Of a stretch of 64,000 nt of DNA, positions 5,417 through 54,915 are shown one piece after another. A program made the translations under genes and the position numbers. The stretch lies in the NCBI RefSeq assembly GCF_001890765.1, contig NZ_KV878783.1, positions 3,314,771 to 3,378,770 of the forward strand, in the 5' to 3' direction. The stretch is from Spirulina major PCC 6313 (lineage in GTDB: Bacteria; Cyanobacteriota; Cyanobacteriia; Cyanobacteriales; Spirulinaceae). Each line of letters opens with the position of its first letter. Positions within the stretch are counted from its first letter, which is position 1. Under the pieces are notes generated by a model that was not told the origin of the DNA, ran no database searches, and saw nothing but the letters and a program-made list of their open reading frames with translations.

Positions 5417-5791
5417 GAGCGAAGACGGTGAGTGTGACATCATGCGAGGGGGTTACGACTCAGCTATTTACAGGTTTTGCTGTCTTGCGAAACTAGGTCT
5501 TTTGTTGAAGACTATTGGAGAATCGTAGTGCAGAATAACCCAATGATCATGACCGGGGCGAAGGGTTAAAATGCGGCTGGGGTGGGTGCAGGCTCCTCAA
5601 GCATGGGAGGATCGCGTTAGTGTGGTGCGATCGCTGTTCAGCATTGACTGAATCCGAGACCGTTGTGATTCTGTCCTGAACAGACTGTGTCAGTCAGAAT
5701 AGTTACCCTGAATTTGGCACAATGGTTCAGTATAGATAGTACGATCACGAACCGTGCATGATTACACCCCTGTCGTTGAGTAAGGGCAGCT
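5417..5791. other. Intergenic region without a gene
   Basis: 375 bases between the coiled-coil gene and the OmpA-like gene. I see no convincing reading frame on either strand and no strong terminator. Some A/T-rich segments near 5685-5740 could hold the promoter of the OmpA-GTPase-kinase genes, but no clean -35/-10 pair stands out. Confidence 0.5.
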
Positions 5792-7900
5792 ATGCCTTTT
5801 CCCTCAGAAGATCCGATTTCTCGTCCCAACCCTGATTCCCAAACACCCTCAATGCCATCCCCTCTTCCCCAAGCTGATGCTTCACTTGGGGAATTATTCC
5901 AGTTTTTAACAGAACATGATCTGCCCCAGCATCCAGATCGCGATCGCCCCCTTGCGGATGCTGGGGCACTCTTTCACTCGTCCCAACCCAACAGACAGGG
6001 CCCCATCTCCGATGAGACCAGTGAGCGGCTCCGGTTGCTCCTGCTGGATCTCCTGGCCATTGATCAACAGAATGCCACCGATACCCCAGCAGAGACCCAA
6101 GACGAACTCTCGCGCCAACTGCGTCGCCTCGAACATCGGTGTCGCGATCCGCGCGTCATGGGGCAGGTTATCTATCCAATTTTTGCGACCCTCCTGCAAC
6201 AGAAAATCGCCCAATCCCCGGACGAAATTGTACCCGCCCTGGCCACCATCATCGATCAGGTCTTAGCGACCCAAAGCCAGCGCGATCGCACCGCCCTCAG
6301 TAAAGCCCTCGCCGCCGCCATTCCCGGCGCGATTTCCAAACAAATGGGGGATGCCCCTCATGAAGTGGTGCAAGCGATCGCCCCCGCCATGGGTAAAGCG
6401 ATCACCGCCCAAATCCGCCTTGATCGGGACTCAATGGTTGATGCACTCTACCCCGTCATTGGCAACACGATTTCCAAATACATGGGGGAAGTGGTCAGCC
6501 AAATCAATCACCGGGTTGAACAAACGTTCAGCCTCACCGGCTTGATGAATCATCTGTCCCTGCGCCTCCGGGGGATTTCCGACGCTGAACAAATCCTCCG
6601 GGATGCGATGCCCTTTAATGTCCAAGCGGTGTTTCTGATTCACAAAGACTCCGGACTCGTGATCGCCGAAGTGCAGCAATCGGGAACAGCAGCCCTCGAA
6701 GCCGATATGCTAGCGGGGATGCTCACGGCAATTCGTAGCTTTGCCGGGGAATGTTCCACCGATCCCCGCCATCAATCGGAACTGACGCAAATCGACTACG
6801 AAGATTTTCAAATCATTATGGAAGTGGCGGGCTACTGTTACCTGGCGGCGGTGACCCAAGGCGACCCACCGGCGATCTTTTCGATCAAACTACGCCAAAC
6901 CATGAGCGCGATTATTCTCAATCATGGCTACGGGGATGCGATCGAACAGTTTGACGGCAATCCCAACAGCGTACCGGAGTCGATCCCAGAACTCCTCCAT
7001 GACCTCCTTAATGCTCCCCAGCAGATCGAACGCTCACCGGTCGAGCGTCGCCCTCTGCCGTGGGGGTTGGTGCTGACATTGGGGTTTGTCTTGGTGGCGG
7101 TGGGGATTCCCTTGGGGGTGATGAAATATCAATGGTGGCAGGCGCACCAGTTGACGGCACAACTGCGCGACACCTTTGTATCAACCCCTAGCTTGGCGCT
7201 GTACCGGATTCAGCCGGTTGTTGAGAATCAGACCATCACGTTAACAGGACAGGTTCCCAGTCTGGTGTTACAACAACAGGCTGCTGACATTACCCGTCAA
7301 CTAGCTCCGGATTTCACCGTCGATAATCAGGTGAGCGCCGTGGATGCTCCCCCGGAGCCAGAGGCGATCGCAGCCGAAGCCCAACGCCTCACCCAAGGCC
7401 TCGCCCAAGTCCTCGCCACCCCCATTACCAGCACCTACGACCCCGATCTCCAGCAACTCCTCGTCCAAGGCAGCGCCCTCAGTGCCGACCAAACCGCTCA
7501 ACTCACCGAAAGTTTACGCCGGATTCCGGGGGTGCAGTCTGTGGTGTTGTCCCTCGATAATCAAGGATCACCCCTAGCCCAACGGGTCTATTTCACCCCC
7601 AACGGTGTCGATATTAGCCCCCAAGAATATAGCCAAAAACTCACGCCCCTGATTCGCTACCTGCGCGACAATCCGACGGTGAAACTCCGCATCATTGGCC
7701 ATACCGATCGCAGCGGAACCGAGCAAATTAATCAACAACTCGCACCCCAGCGAGCGGCTGCGGTGCAAGCGGTGTTGAGTCAAGAAGGGATTCCGCTATC
7801 CCAGCTAGAGACGGTGGGGATGATCGATCCCCCTCCCCAAGTGAGCAATGCCGATGCACTATGGTTAAGTCGGTGCGTGCGCTTTGAAGTGGTTAACTAA
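5792..7900 (+). CDS. OmpA-family envelope protein with internal Roadblock-like domain and BON-like repeats
   Basis: A 702-residue protein with, in order: a low-complexity N-terminus; helical repeats at ~120-245 in which a DALYPVIGNTISK-like unit recurs; a domain at ~262-375 (ISDAEQILRDAMPF, then VFLIHKDSGLVIAEV, then MLAGMLTAIRSFA) resembling Roadblock/LC7-type folds; one transmembrane helix at ~422-445; two BON-like segments at ~455-515 and ~525-590; and a C-terminal OmpA domain (~600-702) with the peptidoglycan-binding pattern IIGHTDRSGTEQINQQLAPQRA. Most likely the N-terminal half is cytoplasmic and the OmpA domain holds the cell wall. Its stop is 20 bases before a Rab-like GTPase. Roadblock proteins such as MglB regulate small GTPases, so a regulator-GTPase pair is a reasonable inference. 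Confidence 0.82.
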   Translation: MPFPSEDPISRPNPDSQTPSMPSPLPQADASLGELFQFLTEHDLPQHPDRDRPLADAGALFHSSQPNRQGPISDETSERLRLLLLDLLAIDQQNATDTPAETQDELSRQLRRLEHRCRDPRVMGQVIYPIFATLLQQKIAQSPDEIVPALATIIDQVLATQSQRDRTALSKALAAAIPGAISKQMGDAPHEVVQAIAPAMGKAITAQIRLDRDSMVDALYPVIGNTISKYMGEVVSQINHRVEQTFSLTGLMNHLSLRLRGISDAEQILRDAMPFNVQAVFLIHKDSGLVIAEVQQSGTAALEADMLAGMLTAIRSFAGECSTDPRHQSELTQIDYEDFQIIMEVAGYCYLAAVTQGDPPAIFSIKLRQTMSAIILNHGYGDAIEQFDGNPNSVPESIPELLHDLLNAPQQIERSPVERRPLPWGLVLTLGFVLVAVGIPLGVMKYQWWQAHQLTAQLRDTFVSTPSLALYRIQPVVENQTITLTGQVPSLVLQQQAADITRQLAPDFTVDNQVSAVDAPPEPEAIAAEAQRLTQGLAQVLATPITSTYDPDLQQLLVQGSALSADQTAQLTESLRRIPGVQSVVLSLDNQGSPLAQRVYFTPNGVDISPQEYSQKLTPLIRYLRDNPTVKLRIIGHTDRSGTEQINQQLAPQRAAAVQAVLSQEGIPLSQLETVGMIDPPPQVSNADALWLSRCVRFEVVN

Positions 7901-44989: not shown

Positions 44990-47900
44990 CTAGAAGGTCG
45001 TGGGCCAATGGATGTAGATCGGGTCGGGGTGGGGTGCGATCGTCAGTTCTAAATGGGAGGGATGCAATACGCCCTGATAGCCGCAACTGGGATGCTGAAA
45101 CCGGAGGGGTAATTCGCCGCTGATTACCGCTTGGTTGAGGCTGATCTGTTGGGCGTGGCCATCGATGCGGAGGGTCTGTTGGCTGAGTTGGTCGCGGATT
45201 TGCACCTGGGCAAAGCGGGGGATGGCTTGGATGTGGAGGTGCTTCAGTTGGAAGCTGAAGCCGTCGGGGGGTTGGGGACTGACCTCCACATCGGGGGGGA
45301 GGCCGCTGATCAGGTGTTCGGGGGTGGTGTCAGCGGTGACGCTGATGCTCAGGGGTGGGGGGATGGTGAGGTCGAGAGCTTCGGCATCGCATTGCCATTG
45401 GGTGGCTTTTTTCTGGAGGTCGTTGCGGGCTTTGAGGGCGCGGCGGACGTTGCCTTGGCGGGTAAGGCTTTGGTCTTGTTTTTTCTTGGCGACGAGCCAG
45501 CGATCGCGGGCAAAGTCTCGCAGCAGAATGTTGGGGTCTTGGGTGAATTGGTCGTAAAAGCTGAGGCTTTCGGCGATCGCACCCACCCGTTCAAGGGCGA
45601 TGCCAATTTCGGGCATCGAGAGGGCGATCGCGTCACTGTCCGCCGGGGGTTGTCCCCAATCCGGCGCGAGGAGAACATGATCTTTTAAAAATTGCTCATA
45701 GCGGCGGCGCAGATCCCGATGCAGGTCGCTAGGTTCGAGGTTGGCATGGGCGAGAGCTTGGACGAGATGGGCCGTGATGCCGAGGCTTTGGGCTTTGGGG
45801 GTATGGAGGAGAGCGGGGTAGGCTTCTAGATGGGCGATCGCCTCTTCCCACTGCTCGGCTTGGGTGGCGTTTTGGACCAGGGTTAGCAGTACCGTTTCGC
45901 CTTCCCCTTGGTCTTGGGCGGCGGTGATCACCTGGGTGATCAACTCCCCATCCTCAAGCTGTTGCCCATAGTCGAGGGCTTCGAGCCAACGGGATTGAGC
46001 AATCAACGCCAGGGTAATTCCCGGTAGCCAGTTTTCGGTATTGGGACAATTAGCCGCCCCCCAGGCGTTGAGGGCTTCTTCATGTTGCCCCGCTTGCACG
46101 AGTTCCACAAGGCCCGCCGGCAGTCCTCGCACGTGGGCCTGGGCGAGGTGATAGGCGGGGGTGTCCTGCTGGCCACAGCGGTTCCAGGTGGCGATCGCAT
46201 CTTCATACCGAGCCGCGTAATAAAAACACTGGCCCGCCAGCGTATCCATCCCTTCATATTCCGCCCCTGCTAAATTGCGCAACACCTCCCCCCAGGCTTG
46301 CCACTGCTCAGCGGGCATCGTCGCGGTGGCCTGGACACAATGGGACGCGATCGCCTCCCGATAGCGATCGATCACCGCTTTCCACGGCCCCATAAACCGA
46401 TAGTCTTCGAGGCGTTGGGAGGCGATCAGCGTCGCTAAAAATGCGGTGAATTGATCCACCGTGGCCACCGTCGGCTCCACCGTCGCCATAAACTGCACCA
46501 AAGGGCGCACCTCCGCCGGTTGCACCGTGAAATCATGGTCGCGAATCTCGCCCCAATCGCAATGGTGATACCACGCTTTTAGTTGCATCCAGCATTCCCC
46601 CTGCCAAAAACAATTCCAGGCTTCCACATCATCCCCCTGAGCCACAAACTGTTTGCCCGCCGCTTCATACTGTTCAGCAAATTTATGGCTCCACGCCTCA
46701 CAGCGAGCCGCCTGCACCCTATCGCCTAGGCGTTCATAGGCTTCCTGGGCGCGGTACATCAGATCAGCATTTTCAGTGTGGAGGCCTTCATCAAAAAGGG
46801 TTTGGGCGATCGCCGGTAGATCATCGGCGCTAATCGTTGCCGTGCCGTCCCCGGTGCTGATCAGTTGAATATGGCTTTCCCACTGTTGGCGGTGCTTGGG
46901 ATGGGCAGCGAGGAAACGATCCAACTCCGCCACATCGCTACCATGCCGCCACAATTGGCGATCGCCCTCCGGACTATCCACAATCACCAGCCGTTCCGTC
47001 GCCCGACTCGCCGCCACATAGAGCTTATTGAAAAAATACCGCGCCTCTTCCGAATGCTCGCTGTGGGGATTCCACGCCCCCGTGGGGCAAGCCTCGCCAA
47101 ACTTGTAGATCACCACCTGTTTAAACTCCAACCCCTTAGCCGCGATCGCGCTCAACACATTCCACGGCGCTCCCCGTTTCCGGCCCGTCTGTAACACCCG
47201 CAACACCGGATCACGCCGCACAAAATCCGCCTCTCCCCCTTGGTCACAAGGCACAATCACGATCGTATCCTGGAACTGATGTTGCACCGTTTCATCCGTC
47301 ACTTCTCGACCGACGATCCATTTTTGGGGCAATTGATCCCCTCCCTTGCGGGCCTGCTGGGGTTGAATTTCTGGCAGATCAAACAACACACTGCGCCACA
47401 GTTGAATCAGATTATTCACCCGCACAATCGGCGCAGCAGATCGATAATTGGACTCCAATTCTTCAAAATTCATCTCTAGATCCAGCATCCCCGTTGGTGA
47501 CAGGGTGGTGATCACCTCGTTATAAAAGGCCGCCTTTAAACTTGACCAGCGGAACCCCGTCGGATTCAAGGTTTGCAACGGATCACCCGCAAAGGCAAAG
47601 GGCAAACTTTCCACATGTTGATGCTCTAGATCATATTGCGAAAACACCGATAAGCGCATGATCAATTGCAATTCTAAATGGGTAAAATCCTGGGCTTCAT
47701 CGCAGAAAATTGCCGTAAATTCACCCCGGTAACATTTCAATTGCAACACGCGCCGAATCAGGTCTTGATCATCCCATTTGCCTTCGTCTTTGAGGGTGCG
47801 ATCGTACCATTTCCACACCGTTTCATAGATTGCATCAAAATCCTCGACCGATACCGTGCGCTCTTTGCGGGGAATTTCCCGATAATCATCGACTTCTAAA

Positions 47901-49330
47901 TAGGTATCCCGTTCATCCAAGTGATACCCCTTAATAAATGTCCGAATCACCTGCCAACAGACTTCTGGCGAATAGACCCGCCGCCGGGTTTTCAGATACT
48001 GCTGGCGAAAATAGTGAAATGAAACATAATTCGCATCATTGAACCGATTCCGTTCCACGAGGGGTAAACGATTGCGCAAAAAGGTACGAAAGGATTGAAA
48101 AAACGGACTAATATCCGGCAGGGCTTCGGATTGGCCCCGCCGTTCTAAAAAGCGATGGTGCGATGCGAGGAGGGGAATCACCCGTTCTTTCGCGACTTTG
48201 AGGAGGCGATCGTTGTAGGCGAGGAAGAGGGGGCGGGGAAAGCTGAGGCAGGGGCGGCCGGCTTCGGTGCAGTAGCGAAGATGGCGGTGGCAATAGTCGG
48301 CAAAGAGGTGAAACAGCATCGTGGATTTGCCGCTGCCGGCTTGCCCGTTGAGAAAGAGGGGCAGGGAGGGTTTTTGAGTCGAAACGTTGTGTAAAATCGC
48401 TTCTTCTTCGGCGGAGAGGGCAAGGTTGGCGCGTTCGTCGGTTTCGATTTCGAGCCAGTTGGTTTCGTCGGCGAGGAGGTAGTCGGGGTAGGCGCGGCGG
48501 GCGATGGTGGTGAGTTCGTCGAGGGTGGTGGGGGTTTGGGAACTGAAGAGGTAGCGGTTTTGTTCGCCATTGGGGTGATGGTGGCTAATTTTCCAGAGGG
48601 GTTCGAGGATGGTTTGGAGGGTGTCGGGGTCGGGGCGATCGCGAAAGGGGGCAATTAAAAAGAGCACCTGACGGGTGGGGTGATCGGCGGTGGTGATGCG
48701 GCTGTAGAGGATGGTGTGTGCGGGTTCGCAATAGAGCCGGATGCCGTCCCAGGGGGTGAGTTCGCCGCGATCGCCGTCAGCATCCGCGAGTTCGGTGATG
48801 ATCCGGTTAAAGGTGCGCCATTCGCTACGGCAGTGGGGTTCAGCAAAGCGGGCCAGCCAGGCTTCGCTTTCGTAGATGACGACTCCGTTAAAGTCCATGC
48901 GGAGACTGGGGCGATCGAGCCAGCGGCGGAGGGATTCGCTTAAGGGGGGGGACGTGGGTTGGGGCTGGTTTGCGCTGTTGTTTTTTTGTTCATTTAACCA
49001 GTCCCACAGGAGACTATCGGGGATCTGGGTGTCTAAAATATTGTTGGCCCAGTCTTGGCGATCGCGCAAAAATTCCTCATAGTCGCGATCGCCCCGCCTG
49101 AACACACGCAACCAGCACAATATTGGTTCATTGCCAATTCGTCGTATGCGGGCAATGAGTCGTAGGTTGCTTTCCTTGCGTTTTAGGTAGGGATAAACAC
49201 GCTCAAACCGCGATAGTACCTGCTCAAGGGGCATGGTTTCCAATTCACGACAGAGGCGATCCACATGTTCGGCGAGGCCAGCTTTTTCGTGAACTTGGGC
49301 ATTGAAGGCGGAGGAGCGATAACAATACAT
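44990..49330 (-). CDS. Very large SF1 (UvrD-like) helicase
   Basis: A 1446-residue protein from the ATG at 49330. The N-terminal ~320 residues are of unknown fold. SF1A helicase motifs follow: Walker A GQAGSGKS at 329-336, DEAQDFT (motif II), GDPLQTLNP (III), NYRSAAPIV (IV), AAKGLEFKQVVIY (V) and VAASRATERLVIV (VI). The C-terminal ~600 residues are Trp- and Ala-rich helical repeats (TPR-like units such as YEDAIATWNRCGQQ), ending in a beta-rich ~100 residues. The length is far beyond UvrD or PcrA (~720). No nuclease motif is evident. Large stand-alone helicases of this kind occur among defence genes, but nothing adjacent proves that here. Confidence 0.85.
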   Translation of the reverse strand: MYCYRSSAFNAQVHEKAGLAEHVDRLCRELETMPLEQVLSRFERVYPYLKRKESNLRLIARIRRIGNEPILCWLRVFRRGDRDYEEFLRDRQDWANNILDTQIPDSLLWDWLNEQKNNSANQPQPTSPPLSESLRRWLDRPSLRMDFNGVVIYESEAWLARFAEPHCRSEWRTFNRIITELADADGDRGELTPWDGIRLYCEPAHTILYSRITTADHPTRQVLFLIAPFRDRPDPDTLQTILEPLWKISHHHPNGEQNRYLFSSQTPTTLDELTTIARRAYPDYLLADETNWLEIETDERANLALSAEEEAILHNVSTQKPSLPLFLNGQAGSGKSTMLFHLFADYCHRHLRYCTEAGRPCLSFPRPLFLAYNDRLLKVAKERVIPLLASHHRFLERRGQSEALPDISPFFQSFRTFLRNRLPLVERNRFNDANYVSFHYFRQQYLKTRRRVYSPEVCWQVIRTFIKGYHLDERDTYLEVDDYREIPRKERTVSVEDFDAIYETVWKWYDRTLKDEGKWDDQDLIRRVLQLKCYRGEFTAIFCDEAQDFTHLELQLIMRLSVFSQYDLEHQHVESLPFAFAGDPLQTLNPTGFRWSSLKAAFYNEVITTLSPTGMLDLEMNFEELESNYRSAAPIVRVNNLIQLWRSVLFDLPEIQPQQARKGGDQLPQKWIVGREVTDETVQHQFQDTIVIVPCDQGGEADFVRRDPVLRVLQTGRKRGAPWNVLSAIAAKGLEFKQVVIYKFGEACPTGAWNPHSEHSEEARYFFNKLYVAASRATERLVIVDSPEGDRQLWRHGSDVAELDRFLAAHPKHRQQWESHIQLISTGDGTATISADDLPAIAQTLFDEGLHTENADLMYRAQEAYERLGDRVQAARCEAWSHKFAEQYEAAGKQFVAQGDDVEAWNCFWQGECWMQLKAWYHHCDWGEIRDHDFTVQPAEVRPLVQFMATVEPTVATVDQFTAFLATLIASQRLEDYRFMGPWKAVIDRYREAIASHCVQATATMPAEQWQAWGEVLRNLAGAEYEGMDTLAGQCFYYAARYEDAIATWNRCGQQDTPAYHLAQAHVRGLPAGLVELVQAGQHEEALNAWGAANCPNTENWLPGITLALIAQSRWLEALDYGQQLEDGELITQVITAAQDQGEGETVLLTLVQNATQAEQWEEAIAHLEAYPALLHTPKAQSLGITAHLVQALAHANLEPSDLHRDLRRRYEQFLKDHVLLAPDWGQPPADSDAIALSMPEIGIALERVGAIAESLSFYDQFTQDPNILLRDFARDRWLVAKKKQDQSLTRQGNVRRALKARNDLQKKATQWQCDAEALDLTIPPPLSISVTADTTPEHLISGLPPDVEVSPQPPDGFSFQLKHLHIQAIPRFAQVQIRDQLSQQTLRIDGHAQQISLNQAVISGELPLRFQHPSCGYQGVLHPSHLELTIAPHPDPIYIHWPTTF

Positions 49331-49460
49331 CAGCAATTGTCCTGGTACAGATAGAAGGAATAGTCTAAGCGGAAAAGAGCGGGTCAGAAGTTTGGCCCGC
49401 AACACTCTATCTTAAGTGTTGCCAGAGGACTCCCGTTAGACCGACGACAGCAGCGATTCC

Positions 49461-50286: not shown

Positions 50287-50922
50287 ATGACGACCCAGCC
50301 CCGCCGTCTTCTCCATGACTTATGCTGTCAGGCGTGCCATCATCCGAAAGGCAGTCGAGAACGTCGTGTGATCCTGTCGCGGTTGATTGAGGCCATCATT
50401 GAGTCTAATCTACTGTGGCGTGGGAATGAACCCTACTATGAAGATGCGCTGCAATTAACCTGGATCTATCTTAGTCGTAACCTGTGCGAATCGGAGACGG
50501 GCAAGCAGTACGATGCCAGGATTAGCAGTGTCACCACCTGGCTTAATGCCTATCTCAAGCGGCGCTTACAGGATTTTCGTGAGCGCGATCGCGATGAAAG
50601 CAACAGTCGCTATCACCCCACGGTCAATACCCCTGATCCAACGGCCTTGATTGTGGCGGAGGACGATATTCCACCCATTTTAGAAAATACTCGTCACTGG
50701 ATCGAAACAGATCCAGAGGGAATTTTAAAGAGCATTGTTCTCAAGCAATATCCCCACATTACCTGTCAATGTCTGTTGTTGCGCCGCCTGCCCCCCGAAA
50801 CCGCTTGGAAGGATCTAGCGGCTGAATTTGACTGTTCCATTTCAACGCTGGCTAGCTTCTATCAGCGCCATTGTTTTCCTCAGTTGCGAAAATTTGCTCA
50901 ATCTGAGGGATATCTAGAGTAG
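50287..50922 (+). CDS. Sigma-70-like factor (ECF-type size) of the DUF1822/CHAT cluster
   Basis: A 211-residue protein with two domains. Residues ~45-110 resemble sigma region 2 (YYEDALQLTWIYLSRNLCE, then VTTWLNAYLKRRLQDFRERDRD); residues ~150-205 resemble region 4 (CQCLLLRRLPPETAWKDLAAEFDCSISTLASFYQRH) with a helix-turn-helix. Match to ECF sigma factors is real but divergent, typical of cyanobacterial genes annotated as sigma-70 family. An AGAGGA precedes the ATG. It is followed at 39 bases by a DUF1822 gene and then by a CHAT protease gene, a gene order I recall from other cyanobacteria. Its promoters are unknown. Confidence 0.82.
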   Translation: MTTQPRRLLHDLCCQACHHPKGSRERRVILSRLIEAIIESNLLWRGNEPYYEDALQLTWIYLSRNLCESETGKQYDARISSVTTWLNAYLKRRLQDFRERDRDESNSRYHPTVNTPDPTALIVAEDDIPPILENTRHWIETDPEGILKSIVLKQYPHITCQCLLLRRLPPETAWKDLAAEFDCSISTLASFYQRHCFPQLRKFAQSEGYLE

Positions 50923-50961
50923 AACGACTAATCTGTTATTCATTGTCATAGTGTCACTGTC

Positions 50962-52050
50962 ATGGGAAATTTTTCCAGTCTAATTTTTCCAATTCCCTCT
51001 CGTCATTGGGCGATCGCCCAATTATTCACCTCGCAACAGGCCAACAGCTTGAAGGCGGCCCAAACCCAACTCAACACCTTAGCCGTCTTGGCGGTTCATG
51101 ACTATTTGCAGATGCTGGATATTGCCACGGATCTGACCCAAAGCGATAGTTGGAACCCAATCATGCGGCTGATGGCGGATGTCGCCGATCTGAAGATCGT
51201 CGGCCAAGGTGTGGTGGAATGTCGGCCGGTGCGATGGTCTGTCGATGCAGCGGCTCGCCCCTCACACTGTCTGGTGCCGCCGGAAGTGTGGAGTGATCGG
51301 GATGAGTCTGGGGTGTTGAACCGGCTTGGGTATATTGTGGTGGGGATTGACTATGCTCAACGTCAGGCGACGTTATTGGGGTTTTGCGCCACGGTGAAGC
51401 AAGAGCGCTTGCCCTTGAGTCGTTTGCAGTCGCTGGAAACCTTCTTGATCCTGCTGGATCGGTTGAGTCCGGTCTCACTCTCGGCTTGGCTGCGGGGAGA
51501 GGCTGACCCGGTTTGGCAAGATGCGATCGCCCTCTTGCAGCGTGATTTCCAGGTTCAGGCCCAAGCCACCCTATCCATGGCGGTGGCCATGCAGCAACAA
51601 TACCCCTGGTGGCAGCGGTGGCGCGATCGCCTCCTGACCCGCCGCCCCCCTGAGTTTGAACCGTCGTGGGCGCTCCGGAGTGCCTTGAGTCCCCCCGGAG
51701 AAACCGCCGCCCATCCCCTCGCCCCCGACAAGATTGCCAAGGCCAAGCACCTCCGCCTCGGGCCATCAGAGGACTCCCCCTGGGTTACCCTCGTCGTGGC
51801 AATCACCCCAGAAGCCCAGCAGCAGATTCAGGTGGTCGCTCAACTGCATCCGGTGGGGGGCGATCGCACCTTACCCCCAAACATCTCTCTGTCATTACAC
51901 GAAAGCAGCGACGTTCCACTCTCACAAACCAAAACCCGCAGTCACGATCAAGGCATTCAGCTTCACCCGTTCCGCGTCCAGAACGGCACAGACTTTCAAC
52001 TCCGGGTAACATTGGGAGAGTCTACCATTGTAGAAGCATTCACGATTTGA
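50962..52050 (+). CDS. DUF1822 family protein
   Basis: A 362-residue soluble protein of the cyanobacterial DUF1822 family: HWAIAQLFTSQQANSLKAAQTQLNTLAVLAVHDYLQML at the start, and a middle with LGYIVVGIDYAQRQATLLGF. The C-terminal part (~260-362) is beta-rich (WVTLVVAITPEAQQQIQVVAQLHPVG, FQLRVTLGE) and looks like an Ig-like or C2-like sandwich. No membrane segment or catalytic motif. It lies between a sigma factor and a CHAT protease with short gaps (39 and 24 bases). By position it could be the regulator or protease substrate that links the two; that is inference. Confidence 0.88.
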   Translation: MGNFSSLIFPIPSRHWAIAQLFTSQQANSLKAAQTQLNTLAVLAVHDYLQMLDIATDLTQSDSWNPIMRLMADVADLKIVGQGVVECRPVRWSVDAAARPSHCLVPPEVWSDRDESGVLNRLGYIVVGIDYAQRQATLLGFCATVKQERLPLSRLQSLETFLILLDRLSPVSLSAWLRGEADPVWQDAIALLQRDFQVQAQATLSMAVAMQQQYPWWQRWRDRLLTRRPPEFEPSWALRSALSPPGETAAHPLAPDKIAKAKHLRLGPSEDSPWVTLVVAITPEAQQQIQVVAQLHPVGGDRTLPPNISLSLHESSDVPLSQTKTRSHDQGIQLHPFRVQNGTDFQLRVTLGESTIVEAFTI

Positions 52051-52074
52051 AGCATTTACAGTTGAGGTAAGGAA

Positions 52075-53910
52075 ATGACACGAGTGGTGGTGCTCAATTT
52101 TGGCTTGGGAAGTCTAGAAACGGGCTTCCCATCCATCACAGCTCGTCTAGGACTATCGGGGCCCCTCCTCACCCAAAGCATCGCTTCCCTGCCCCCCGCT
52201 CCCCACATCGTTCAACTGTATCGAAGCTGGCGCGTCCTCTACGATGCCCTGGCCAGCTATCCCGTCCGGCAACTCTCCACCCCTGGCATCAGCATCGAAG
52301 CCACGGGAATTACCCATATTTCCACCACCGACTTTGAAAACCTCAACACCAAACTGATCCAAGCCCTCAACACCTGGCTCAACCACACAGCCTTTCGCCC
52401 CATTGAACGCCACCTGCGCACCCACATCAGCCCCACGGAAACCTTTCGGATTGTGATTGAAAGCGATCAGGAATTGTTGTGGCGTTTGCCGTGGCAAGCC
52501 TGGGAGTTACTCAAAACGGACTACCCCTACGGCGAGATTGCCCTCAGCCCCCCCAACTACTCCGCCCCGGTCTTATTTTCACCCCCCCCACGACGGCAGA
52601 AAGTACGTGTGCTCGTGATTCTCGGTGACAGTCGGGGCATCAATGTGATGCACGATGTTCGCGTCCTGAAACAATTACCAGGCATCCAATTAACAACCTT
52701 AGATGAACCGAGCCGAGCGGAAGTGATTCAGGCCCTGTGGGCCAAGCGTTGGGATATTTTGCTCTTTTCTGGCCATAGTTCCAGTCATCACGATGCGACC
52801 CATGGCACGCTGTTTATTAATCCCACCGCGCATCACAATAAAATCACGATTACCGAACTGCAAGAAGCCCTCAACCATGCGGTTCAGCAAGGGTTACAAC
52901 TGGCGATTTTTAACTCCTGTGATGGACTAGGCCTGGCCCGCGATCTGGCCGCTGCCCAGATTCCCTTGCCGCCCTTTGTGGTGATGCGGGAAGCCGTGCC
53001 CGACTGTGTCGCCCATACGTTTCTGAAGAGCTTTTTGCGGACATTTGCGGAGGGATATCCCTTTCATTTGGCGGTGCGCTATGCCCGTGAACAGTTACGC
53101 AGCCTAGAGGATAAATTACCGGGCGTGTCAGGCTTGCCGATTATTTGCCAACATCCGGCGGTGATCCCGCCTACATGGGCAGAATTACGCGGTCAGGAGA
53201 TCAAGACGGCTCAGACGCGGCCCCTCCCTTGGCGGCAGCGACGGTATGGCTGGGGTATAGCGTTGGTCAGTGCGTTGGCGGTCTATGGTTTTTGGGGTGG
53301 GATGCTAGCCCAGCAGTTGAACCAATGGGGGAAGGCGGCGGCCCAGGAGGATCACCTCGTCACCTCGCGCTGGTTTTATCAGGGAGCGATCGCCCTGGCT
53401 CCCCTCGGATCAGAAGCCTACTACAACCTAGGTCGTCTCTGCGAACAAAAGCAAGAGAATTTAGACTGTGCCTTCAATGCCTATCGCAATGCTGCGAACC
53501 GGGGATCGGGTGCTGCCATTGTTAAGAGTGCTCAACTCTCACTGCGCACTCAAGCCCACCGTGTTGAAGAGGTCATTGTGATGACCGAGCGGTGTTTAGA
53601 TAACCCTCAAATTCAGGTGAAAGCTGAATGTTTCAGCACTCGTGCTTGGGCGTTGTGGGAAGATAATCGTCCTCAAGAAGCGAAATTTTGGACACAAAAA
53701 TCCCTACGGTTATCTCTGACTAATCCCCATGCCCTCTGCCTCTACGCTCAAATTTTAGAATCTGAAAAGAATCCATCCCAAGCACGGGTTTACTGGGAGC
53801 AAGTGATCAAATATTCCCACTACCATACCGATGAACAAAACACCTGTTTAAAAAAAGCCTACCAACGACGTTCTAGTGTAAGCATTCAGGTCATGAGGAT
53901 TTGGCTGTAA
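52075..53910 (+). CDS. Membrane-anchored CHAT-domain protease with TPR-like repeats
   Basis: A 611-residue protein. The N-terminal ~150 residues are a helical/beta pre-domain. The CHAT caspase-like domain spans ~175-365 with the catalytic dyad His234 (LLFSGHSSSH) and Cys282 (IFNSCDGLGLA). A single transmembrane helix lies at ~391-412 after a basic stretch (RQRRYGW), so the protease faces the cytoplasm. The C-terminal ~195 residues are TPR-like repeats (SEAYYNLGRLCEQKQ; AECFSTRAWALWEDNRPQEAKFW), which would be on the other side of the membrane. It is the last gene of the sigma-DUF1822-CHAT set. CHAT proteases act in programmed proteolysis, including the Csx29 protease of type III-E CRISPR. Confidence 0.9.
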   Translation: MTRVVVLNFGLGSLETGFPSITARLGLSGPLLTQSIASLPPAPHIVQLYRSWRVLYDALASYPVRQLSTPGISIEATGITHISTTDFENLNTKLIQALNTWLNHTAFRPIERHLRTHISPTETFRIVIESDQELLWRLPWQAWELLKTDYPYGEIALSPPNYSAPVLFSPPPRRQKVRVLVILGDSRGINVMHDVRVLKQLPGIQLTTLDEPSRAEVIQALWAKRWDILLFSGHSSSHHDATHGTLFINPTAHHNKITITELQEALNHAVQQGLQLAIFNSCDGLGLARDLAAAQIPLPPFVVMREAVPDCVAHTFLKSFLRTFAEGYPFHLAVRYAREQLRSLEDKLPGVSGLPIICQHPAVIPPTWAELRGQEIKTAQTRPLPWRQRRYGWGIALVSALAVYGFWGGMLAQQLNQWGKAAAQEDHLVTSRWFYQGAIALAPLGSEAYYNLGRLCEQKQENLDCAFNAYRNAANRGSGAAIVKSAQLSLRTQAHRVEEVIVMTERCLDNPQIQVKAECFSTRAWALWEDNRPQEAKFWTQKSLRLSLTNPHALCLYAQILESEKNPSQARVYWEQVIKYSHYHTDEQNTCLKKAYQRRSSVSIQVMRIWL

Positions 53911-54114: not shown

Positions 54115-54915
54115 TTGGCTCATCTTGAATGTCCAAAACTTAAGGTGACGGTGCGTTACGCTTCGCTAACAGCACCCTACTGTCATGACATAGCTAATTA
54201 TTCTGAGTTGCGGGCTGCCCTCGCTCAGGCTTTGGCGACAGAGGTGGAATTTGTGCCGGTGGATGATCAGATTTCGGGGGCGGTGTTGTTGAAGGATGGT
54301 CAAATTGATTTAGCCTTGGTGGGGCCATCGGAATATGTGGTGATCCAGGCGCGAACCAATGCAGTGTCGGTGATTGGCATTACCCGCCCGAATTATCGCT
54401 CGGTGTTGGCCACAAGAGCCGAGAGTGAGGTTAAGGCGATCGCTGATCTCAAGTCCAAAACGCTGGCCCTGTCGGATGTGGGATCAACCAGCGGTCACTT
54501 GGGGCCGATCGCGATGCTGGTTGAAGCGGGTTTAGATCCGCAGCAAGATTTAACCGTGGAAATGCTCGGTGATGATGGCAGTACGGCGGCGCTGCGATCG
54601 GGGCAGGTGGAGGCGTGGGGAGGGTCGTTCACTGACTATGAGGACATGAGTCAGGCTGCACCGGAACAGTTTGTCATCTTGCAACGTGGGCCATTATTGC
54701 CCAGTGATGTTTTGATTGCGGGCAGCCATATTGCAGCGGATGTGGTAACCGCAATCCAAGCTAAAATGCTGGCCAATGAAGCGGCGTTAACGACGGCGAT
54801 CGCTACCCATGAGCGTAAATATGAAGGATCAACTCTCACAGTCATGCAAGACCAAGACTATGATTCGATCCGCGCTGCCTACAGTGCGATCGGCCAAGGG
54901 AACTTTCTCAATTAG
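54115..54915 (+). CDS. PhnD-like phosphate/phosphonate-binding protein, 5'-truncated
   Basis: An open frame of 266 codons that matches PhnD/SsuA-type periplasmic binding proteins: YSELRAALAQALATEVEFVPVDDQ, LALVGPSEYVVI, IADLKSKTLALSDVGSTSG and LPSDVLIAGSHI. But the usual signal peptide and first ~25 residues are missing. In their place the frame runs through a palindromic repeat (GGTGCGTTACGCTTCGCTAA, 54149-54168, pairing with the AGCACC that follows). The only upstream start is a TTG with no ribosome binding site. An unexported binding protein cannot do the family's job, so this is probably a pseudogene. No transporter genes adjoin. Confidence 0.7.
   Translation: MAHLECPKLKVTVRYASLTAPYCHDIANYSELRAALAQALATEVEFVPVDDQISGAVLLKDGQIDLALVGPSEYVVIQARTNAVSVIGITRPNYRSVLATRAESEVKAIADLKSKTLALSDVGSTSGHLGPIAMLVEAGLDPQQDLTVEMLGDDGSTAALRSGQVEAWGGSFTDYEDMSQAAPEQFVILQRGPLLPSDVLIAGSHIAADVVTAIQAKMLANEAALTTAIATHERKYEGSTLTVMQDQDYDSIRAAYSAIGQGNFLN

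What the first reader, a model, noticed from the sequence alone, without database searches (positions are those of the whole stretch)
50287..53910. Sigma factor + DUF1822 + membrane CHAT protease: a CRISPR-free counterpart of the Craspase signalling arm
Three same-strand genes with short gaps (39 and 24 bases) encode a sigma-70-like factor, a DUF1822 protein and a CHAT protease with an intact His234/Cys282 dyad, one transmembrane helix and TPR-like repeats on the far side. In type III-E CRISPR, a TPR-CHAT protease (Csx29) cleaves Csx30, and this frees a sigma factor. Here the same kinds of parts occur without CRISPR genes. A testable model: the repeats sense an envelope or stress signal, the protease cuts DUF1822, and the sigma factor is released to start a response. 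I recall this gene order in other cyanobacteria but no experimental work on it. Gene content and motifs are seen; the mechanism is inference.
Basis: partly seen in the sequence, partly recalled or inferred. Interest (0 to 1): 0.85.

Follow-up and report, generated by a model that had tools for sequence, protein, structure and literature searches.

The report
Membrane caspase-like receptor gating sigma factor
Three neighbouring genes of a cyanobacterium appear to form a signalling relay in which a membrane receptor with a caspase-like protease controls a gene-switching protein (sigma factor) through a go-between of unknown function (DUF1822), which new evidence marks as the sigma factor's likely inhibitor; the gene trio was noted in print in 2021, but no experimental work on it was found.

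Summary
The three genes are present as described. They are a recurrent cyanobacterial module: this genome holds four copies, and 100 of 107 DUF1822 genes sampled across the phylum have a sigma-like gene directly upstream; 62 have this CHAT type downstream. The association is not new: Kaur et al. 2021 (PMC8195603) reported ECF sigma + DUF1822 beside "EACC2-caspase" proteins with variable sensors. New here: (1) the first protein is ECF-like by predicted fold and family profile; (2) in early-branching relatives DUF1822's N domain is followed by a zinc-finger anti-sigma domain, so DUF1822 is probably an anti-sigma; (3) co-variation puts DUF1822 between sigma and CHAT; (4) catalytic His/Cys are intact in 157 of 157 CHAT proteins, with swappable, mostly periplasmic sensors; (5) one sigma clade (not the window's) carries an ECF-type promoter element, also found before genes for exported proteins, a CHAT receptor and another sigma. 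The Craspase comparison holds as analogy of wiring, not as homology. Cleavage of DUF1822 by CHAT is untested. Verdict: real, probably a protease-gated sigma/anti-sigma receptor; a new variant of a known kind.

The parts
50287..50922 (+). ECF-like sigma factor, 211 aa; region 2 about residues 6-108, region 4 about residues 130-206
50962..52050 (+). DUF1822 protein, 362 aa, proposed anti-sigma
50962..51432 (+). DUF1822 N domain (residues 1-157), alpha/beta; the part that co-varies most with sigma and that precedes a zinc-finger anti-sigma domain in distant relatives
51637..51732 (+). DUF1822 low-confidence linker (residues 226-257), inferred candidate for cleavage
   Evidence: pLDDT 56-75, variable in length and sequence
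51733..52047 (+). DUF1822 C domain (residues 258-362), Ig-like beta-sandwich
52075..53910 (+). CHAT receptor protease, 611 aa: constant N module (1-97), CHAT (98-346), TM (about 394-412), TPR-like (434-580)
52774..52776 (+). catalytic His234
   Evidence: invariant in 157 of 157 aligned proteins
52918..52920 (+). catalytic Cys282
   Evidence: invariant in 157 of 157 aligned proteins
53254..53310 (+). single predicted transmembrane segment (residues 394-412), CHAT side cytoplasmic
   Evidence: hydropathy and positive-inside rule over the family
53374..53814 (+). TPR-like sensor part (residues 434-580), predicted periplasmic

Best explanation
The trio is a transmembrane signalling relay. The CHAT protein is a receptor: its TPR-like part faces the periplasm and senses an envelope or extracellular cue, and its cysteine-protease domain faces the cytoplasm. 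DUF1822 is an anti-sigma factor whose N domain holds the ECF-like sigma factor. On stimulation the protease cuts DUF1822, probably in the flexible linker between its N part and its Ig-like C domain. The sigma factor is then freed to transcribe its own operon (at least in one clade) and a set of genes for exported and surface proteins. Shown: genes, predicted folds and topology, conservation, the DUF1822/zinc-finger anti-sigma association in distant relatives, the co-variation pattern, a promoter element in one clade. Inferred: binding, cleavage, the signal, and the targets of this particular sigma.
For: Sigma identity. Sigma-like gene directly upstream of 100 of 107 DUF1822 genes and CHAT directly downstream of 62; 62 of 83 loci found by CHAT have DUF1822 upstream. 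In 11 of 27 proteins of non-photosynthetic relatives the DUF1822 N domain is followed by a zinc finger that matches zf-HC2 (8 of 11, best E 8e-7) and anti-sigma RsiW (E 4e-4); the N domain is homologous to that of the window family (E 1.7e-16). Distance correlations: sigma-DUF 0.56, DUF-CHAT 0.62, sigma-CHAT 0.33, falling to -0.03 given DUF. Catalytic dyad 157 of 157; TM segment with CHAT inside 93 against 6. Sensors CHASE2, periplasmic-binding, TPR and others. Bipartite element before 8 of 29 sigmas of one clade and 0 of 516 other genes, with genes for exported proteins behind further sites.
Against: No cleavage or binding data. 45 of 107 DUF1822 genes have no CHAT directly downstream, so CHAT is not the only partner or acts in trans. 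The window's DUF1822 has no zinc finger. DUF1822 is the middle gene, which alone could favour the correlation pattern. The promoter element is absent from the window's sigma clade.
Confidence: 0.5

Rival explanations
1. Sigma and DUF1822 are a sigma/anti-sigma pair, but CHAT does not cut DUF1822: it cuts itself or another protein, as Kaur et al. 2021 proposed (autopeptidase activation by the sensor module), or it relieves DUF1822 by binding through its C domain.
For: The published proposal is autopeptidase activation. DUF1822 loci without CHAT show that the pair can work without it. CHAT co-varies about equally with both ends of DUF1822.
Against: The dyad is invariant in 157 proteins, and no other protein is as constantly linked to this CHAT type as DUF1822. 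These points do not exclude it.
Confidence: 0.27
2. DUF1822 is not an inhibitor but a positive partner (adaptor or chaperone) that brings the sigma to the membrane receptor or stabilises it, and proteolysis ends the response.
For: The same linkage and co-variation data. The window copy lacks the zinc finger, and its fold is not that of a known anti-sigma domain.
Against: Distant members carry an RsiW-like zinc finger directly behind the DUF1822 N domain.
Confidence: 0.12
3. The module is a defence or programmed-death system: CHAT is an effector that cuts many proteins on infection, and the sigma is a side branch.
For: Kaur et al. place the family among conflict systems; nSTAND and WD40 variants exist; one paralogue lies beside a CRISPR array.
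Against: No PADLOC match for any of the three. Several co-existing copies per genome, exchangeable periplasmic sensors and an inferred set of exported-protein targets fit signalling better.
Confidence: 0.1

Closest known systems
EACC2-caspase neighbourhoods with ECF sigma and DUF1822 (Kaur et al. 2021, eLife, PMC8195603)
   Same: Same three gene kinds; constant N-terminal protease module with variable C-terminus (CHASE2, repeats, TM).
   Different: The paper gives the association and an autopeptidase proposal. It calls DUF1822 a TPR protein, which the model of this copy does not show, and does not identify it as an anti-sigma.
Type III-E Craspase signalling arm: Csx29 (TPR-CHAT), Csx30, CASP-sigma (PMC10028731)
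   Same: CHAT protease, middle protein, ECF sigma; in Csx30 the N domain binds sigma and the C-terminal part is cut.
   Different: No Cas7-11 or guide RNA here; CHAT comes first, then a membrane helix and a periplasmic, exchangeable sensor; no detectable sequence relation of DUF1822 or this CHAT to any solved chain.
Protease-regulated membrane anti-sigma factors (RseA with DegS; RsiW)
   Same: An envelope cue is turned into sigma release by proteolysis; distant DUF1822 relatives carry an RsiW-like zinc finger.
   Different: Here the middle protein has no membrane helix, and the membrane-spanning sensor and the protease are one protein with the protease inside.

Membership tests
EACC2-caspase / ECF sigma / DUF1822 neighbourhood (Kaur 2021) | caspase-like (CHAT) domain near the N-terminus with intact dyad | tested here: met
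EACC2-caspase / ECF sigma / DUF1822 neighbourhood (Kaur 2021) | EACC2 alpha+beta domain before the protease | not testable with these tools
   The published alignment is in a supplement that could not be read; the 97 residues before CHAT hold conserved positions (P40, W52)
EACC2-caspase / ECF sigma / DUF1822 neighbourhood (Kaur 2021) | highly variable C-terminus including CHASE2 and TM modules | tested here: met
EACC2-caspase / ECF sigma / DUF1822 neighbourhood (Kaur 2021) | adjacent ECF sigma and DUF1822 genes | tested here: met
ECF sigma factor (gene 50287-50922) | regions 2 and 4 with ECF fold | tested here: met
   predicted structure and family profile; the single protein has no Pfam sigma match
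Type III-E Craspase arm | CRISPR effector Cas7-11 and CRISPR genes at the locus | tested here: not met
   the flanking genes are a UvrD/AAA-like protein and a phosphonate-binding-like protein; the rest of the genome was not searched for Cas7-11
Type III-E Craspase arm | middle protein homologous to Csx30 | tested here: inconclusive
   no sequence match; fold lists cover only the Ig-like C domain
Zinc-finger (ZAS) anti-sigma factors, applied to DUF1822 | H-x3-C-x2-C zinc finger in the protein itself | tested here: not met
   window DUF1822 has none; only distant relatives carry it. Claimed: works like an anti-sigma; not claimed: a ZAS member
Anti-sigma factor by function (DUF1822) | co-encoded with its sigma factor | tested here: met
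   100 of 107 loci
Anti-sigma factor by function (DUF1822) | binds and inhibits the cognate sigma | not testable with these tools
   needs complex prediction or experiment

The most novel reading that the evidence does not exclude
DUF1822 is a large family of anti-sigma factors, and in cyanobacteria it is gated by transmembrane caspase-like receptors with exchangeable sensors: a general CRISPR-free protease-sigma switch, several copies per genome, to which the type III-E Craspase arm is a parallel or a derived wiring.
Probability: 0.4. Interest if true: 0.78.

Novelty: new variant of a known kind. Interest (0 to 1): 0.62.

Why it matters
DUF1822 has no assigned function, yet 188 of 292 genomes sampled across the phylum have a match, many with several copies. 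If it is an anti-sigma released by a caspase-like receptor, cyanobacteria have a signalling class beside two-component systems in which one membrane protein is both sensor and protease, and the role of this CHAT subtype becomes testable. It would also show that the protease/anti-sigma/sigma wiring of Craspase exists without CRISPR.

Tried and rejected
Pfam, NCBIfam and PADLOC on the single sigma protein gave nothing useful. DUF1822 against solved structures by sequence: no hit; by fold only the generic Ig-like domain; Csx30 did not appear in these lists, which proves nothing. CHAT profile against the PDB: no hit up to E 0.1. The window's sigma clade has no enriched promoter element; a single AAC-N16-CATAAA match upstream of 50287 is at background level (9 of 516 other genes) and was dropped. 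Terminator- and promoter-like sites near the trio are no more frequent than in shuffles. Profile comparison of the short and long sigma classes gave only a weak overlap; they are treated as separate classes, and the long class matches sigma regions by itself. A sigma gene beside the zinc-finger DUF1822 of genome G016 (L334) looked possible, but the comparison was inconclusive. TRADD-N association was not tested.

Full report
Observation. The three ORFs lie where stated, on the + strand, with gaps of 39 and 24 bases. DUF1822 and CHAT are clear by Pfam. The first gene has no Pfam or NCBIfam sigma match, so 'sigma-70-like' was the weakest point. It holds at family level: of 42 relatives 12 match Sigma70_r4_2 and 3 match r2; the family profile finds M. 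tuberculosis ECF SigE and SigK in the PDB at E 0.0016-0.0019; the AF2 model (pLDDT 92) matches mostly sigma factors, region 2 with Z 9.1-9.5 and rmsd 1.9-2.8, region 4 with Z 6.3 and rmsd 2.5. The public annotation also calls the corresponding gene sigma-70 family in three of four plasmid records viewed ('hypothetical protein' in the fourth).

Recurrence. The same genome has four DUF1822 genes, each followed by a CHAT gene of the same subtype and preceded by a sigma-like gene, short in three and long (422 aa) in one. The genome has 36 CHAT matches, and only these four belong to the trio. In loci taken from the top-scoring phylum-wide matches, 107 DUF1822 genes were classified: 100 have a same-strand sigma-like gene directly upstream (47 short, 53 long class) and 62 have CHAT directly downstream; median gaps are 24.5 and 30 nt. 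These loci were chosen by score and are not a random sample. In the reverse direction, of 83 named or plasmid loci with the CHAT type 62 have DUF1822 directly upstream, and 56 of these a sigma-like gene before it; in some of the others sigma and DUF1822 are divergently oriented. The 80 best genome matches all bear cyanobacterial names. The module also sits on plasmids, some conjugative.

Prior knowledge. Kaur et al. 2021 (PMC8195603) described proteins with a constant EACC2 plus caspase module and a highly variable C-terminus, next to ECF sigma and DUF1822 genes in the majority of the neighbourhoods that lack TRADD-N. That is this trio. They proposed autopeptidase activation and a transcriptional output. 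Only two papers in the held library mention DUF1822; no experimental work was found.

Receptor. The CHAT dyad is intact in 157 of 157 aligned proteins. 111 of 157 have a TM segment between residues 300 and 520, with more positive charge on the CHAT side in 93 and on the far side in 6, so CHAT is predicted inside and the C-terminus outside. C-terminal modules include CHASE2 (36 of 62), Peripla_BP_6 (7), TPR (about 7), nSTAND1 (4) and WD40 (2). In this genome three are TPR and one is CHASE2. Exchangeable, mostly extracytoplasmic modules on a conserved protease are the picture of a receptor. The nSTAND/WD40 forms are presumably intracellular.

DUF1822. The AF2 model (pLDDT 88.7) has an alpha/beta N domain, a helical segment, a low-confidence linker (226-257) and an Ig-like C domain; the window copy is not a TPR solenoid, though a paralogue has HEAT repeats inserted. 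The key clue comes from small-genome relatives outside the photosynthetic classes (family f31, plus one f30 genome; probably Gastranaerophilales and allies, identity inferred). There the DUF1822 N domain (hhalign E 1.7e-16 to the cyanobacterial family) is followed in 11 of 27 proteins by an H-x3-C-x2-C zinc finger. Pfam zf-HC2 matches 8 of these 11, best E 8e-7, and the profile hits anti-sigma RsiW (E 4e-4), DdvA (0.07) and RslA (0.08) exactly there. At least two of them continue into a hydrophobic, TM-like segment. This is the architecture of known anti-sigma factors. Together with the near-constant upstream sigma gene it makes anti-sigma the best reading of DUF1822. For the window's copy, which lacks the zinc finger, it remains an inference.

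Who touches whom. On 50 short-sigma trios, distance-matrix correlations are sigma-DUF 0.56, DUF-CHAT(N) 0.62, sigma-CHAT(N) 0.33 and sensor-sigma 0.14. The sigma-CHAT correlation falls to -0.03 when DUF1822 is controlled for. The DUF1822 N domain goes with sigma (0.57) more than the C domain does (0.35; 5-95% bootstrap intervals 0.47-0.67 and 0.24-0.45), while both go about equally with CHAT (0.52, 0.55). This fits DUF1822 as the link between sigma and CHAT, with the N domain on the sigma side. Caveats: DUF1822 is also the middle gene, and no species-tree control was made.

Output. In one clade of the short sigmas (not the window's) the upstream regions share TTTTGTAACAA - about 15 nt - TGC[GA]TAAAA. 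The core TTGTAA-N15-19-C[GA]TAA occurs before 8 of 29 clade members and 0 of 516 other genes; it was found and counted on the same loci. Form and spacing are those of an ECF promoter (established knowledge), so autoregulation is likely. A genome-wide scan of twelve genomes found 77 sites against 30 for the reversed control pattern. Genes directly behind selected sites include a TPS adhesin, an RTX/CAP protein, a PPC-domain protein, LprI, a secreted trypsin with PEP-CTERM, a subtilase/CHAP protein, a CHAT-STAND-WD40 receptor and another sigma of the family; the sites were chosen for similarity to the element, so this is a list, not an enrichment test. CHAT-linked loci lie near TPS, ShlB, DUF928 or CHAT-TPR genes in 32 of 62 cases against 10 of 45 without CHAT (p 0.003), and the closest relative of the window trio, in Limnofasciculus baicalensis, is followed on the same strand by DUF928 and TPS genes. 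The window trio has no such neighbours, so its own targets are unknown.

Judgement. What it works like: a protease-gated sigma/anti-sigma receptor, similar in wiring to DegS-RseA and to Csx29-Csx30-CASP-sigma. What it is a member of: most likely the published EACC2-caspase/ECF/DUF1822 neighbourhoods. It is not shown to be a relative of Craspase. Stepwise confidence (my estimate): sigma factor 0.93; DUF1822 is the sigma's inhibitor 0.75; the CHAT protein controls it 0.7; by cutting it 0.5.

Noticed in passing
L308, L312, L314, L316, L320, L324, L327, L328, L332, L334, L339: Proteins of small-genome, probably non-photosynthetic relatives in which the DUF1822 N domain is followed by a zinc-finger anti-sigma domain; in most f31 proteins an acidic low-complexity tail follows. 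What they regulate is unknown, and no sigma gene was found within 1.5 kb by these profiles.
   Followed up: partly
L007:2-2065 and L007:2313-5500 (same genome as the window): A CRISPR array of 43 repeats and a Cas3-like gene lie directly beside the paralogous trio at L007:6469-9976, with a DUF928-like gene (5546-6463) between.
   Followed up: partly
L288:405-704 and L292:475-768: A conserved small zinc-ribbon-like protein (about 100 aa) lies behind the clade-A promoter element in two genomes; unknown function.
   Followed up: no
L050, L097: A CHAT-TPR gene of the type often found near the trio is inserted between the sigma gene and DUF1822 on the same strand.
   Followed up: no
L005:7991-9472 (also L081, L082): HEAT-like repeats are inserted into the linker region of DUF1822 in some copies (Pfam-confirmed for L005), perhaps the reason why the family was called a TPR protein.
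   Followed up: partly
window 54115-54915: Phosphonate-type periplasmic binding protein ORF with a TTG start and no evident signal peptide, 205 bases behind the CHAT gene; possibly truncated.
   Followed up: no
window 44990-49405 (-): 1471-aa protein with UvrD/AAA-like helicase pieces and only weak PADLOC (GajB) matches.
   Followed up: no
L334:1915-3057 (-): A 380-aa gene 9 bases upstream of a zinc-finger DUF1822 gene has an HTH-like C-terminus and might be a divergent sigma; the comparison was inconclusive.
   Followed up: partly
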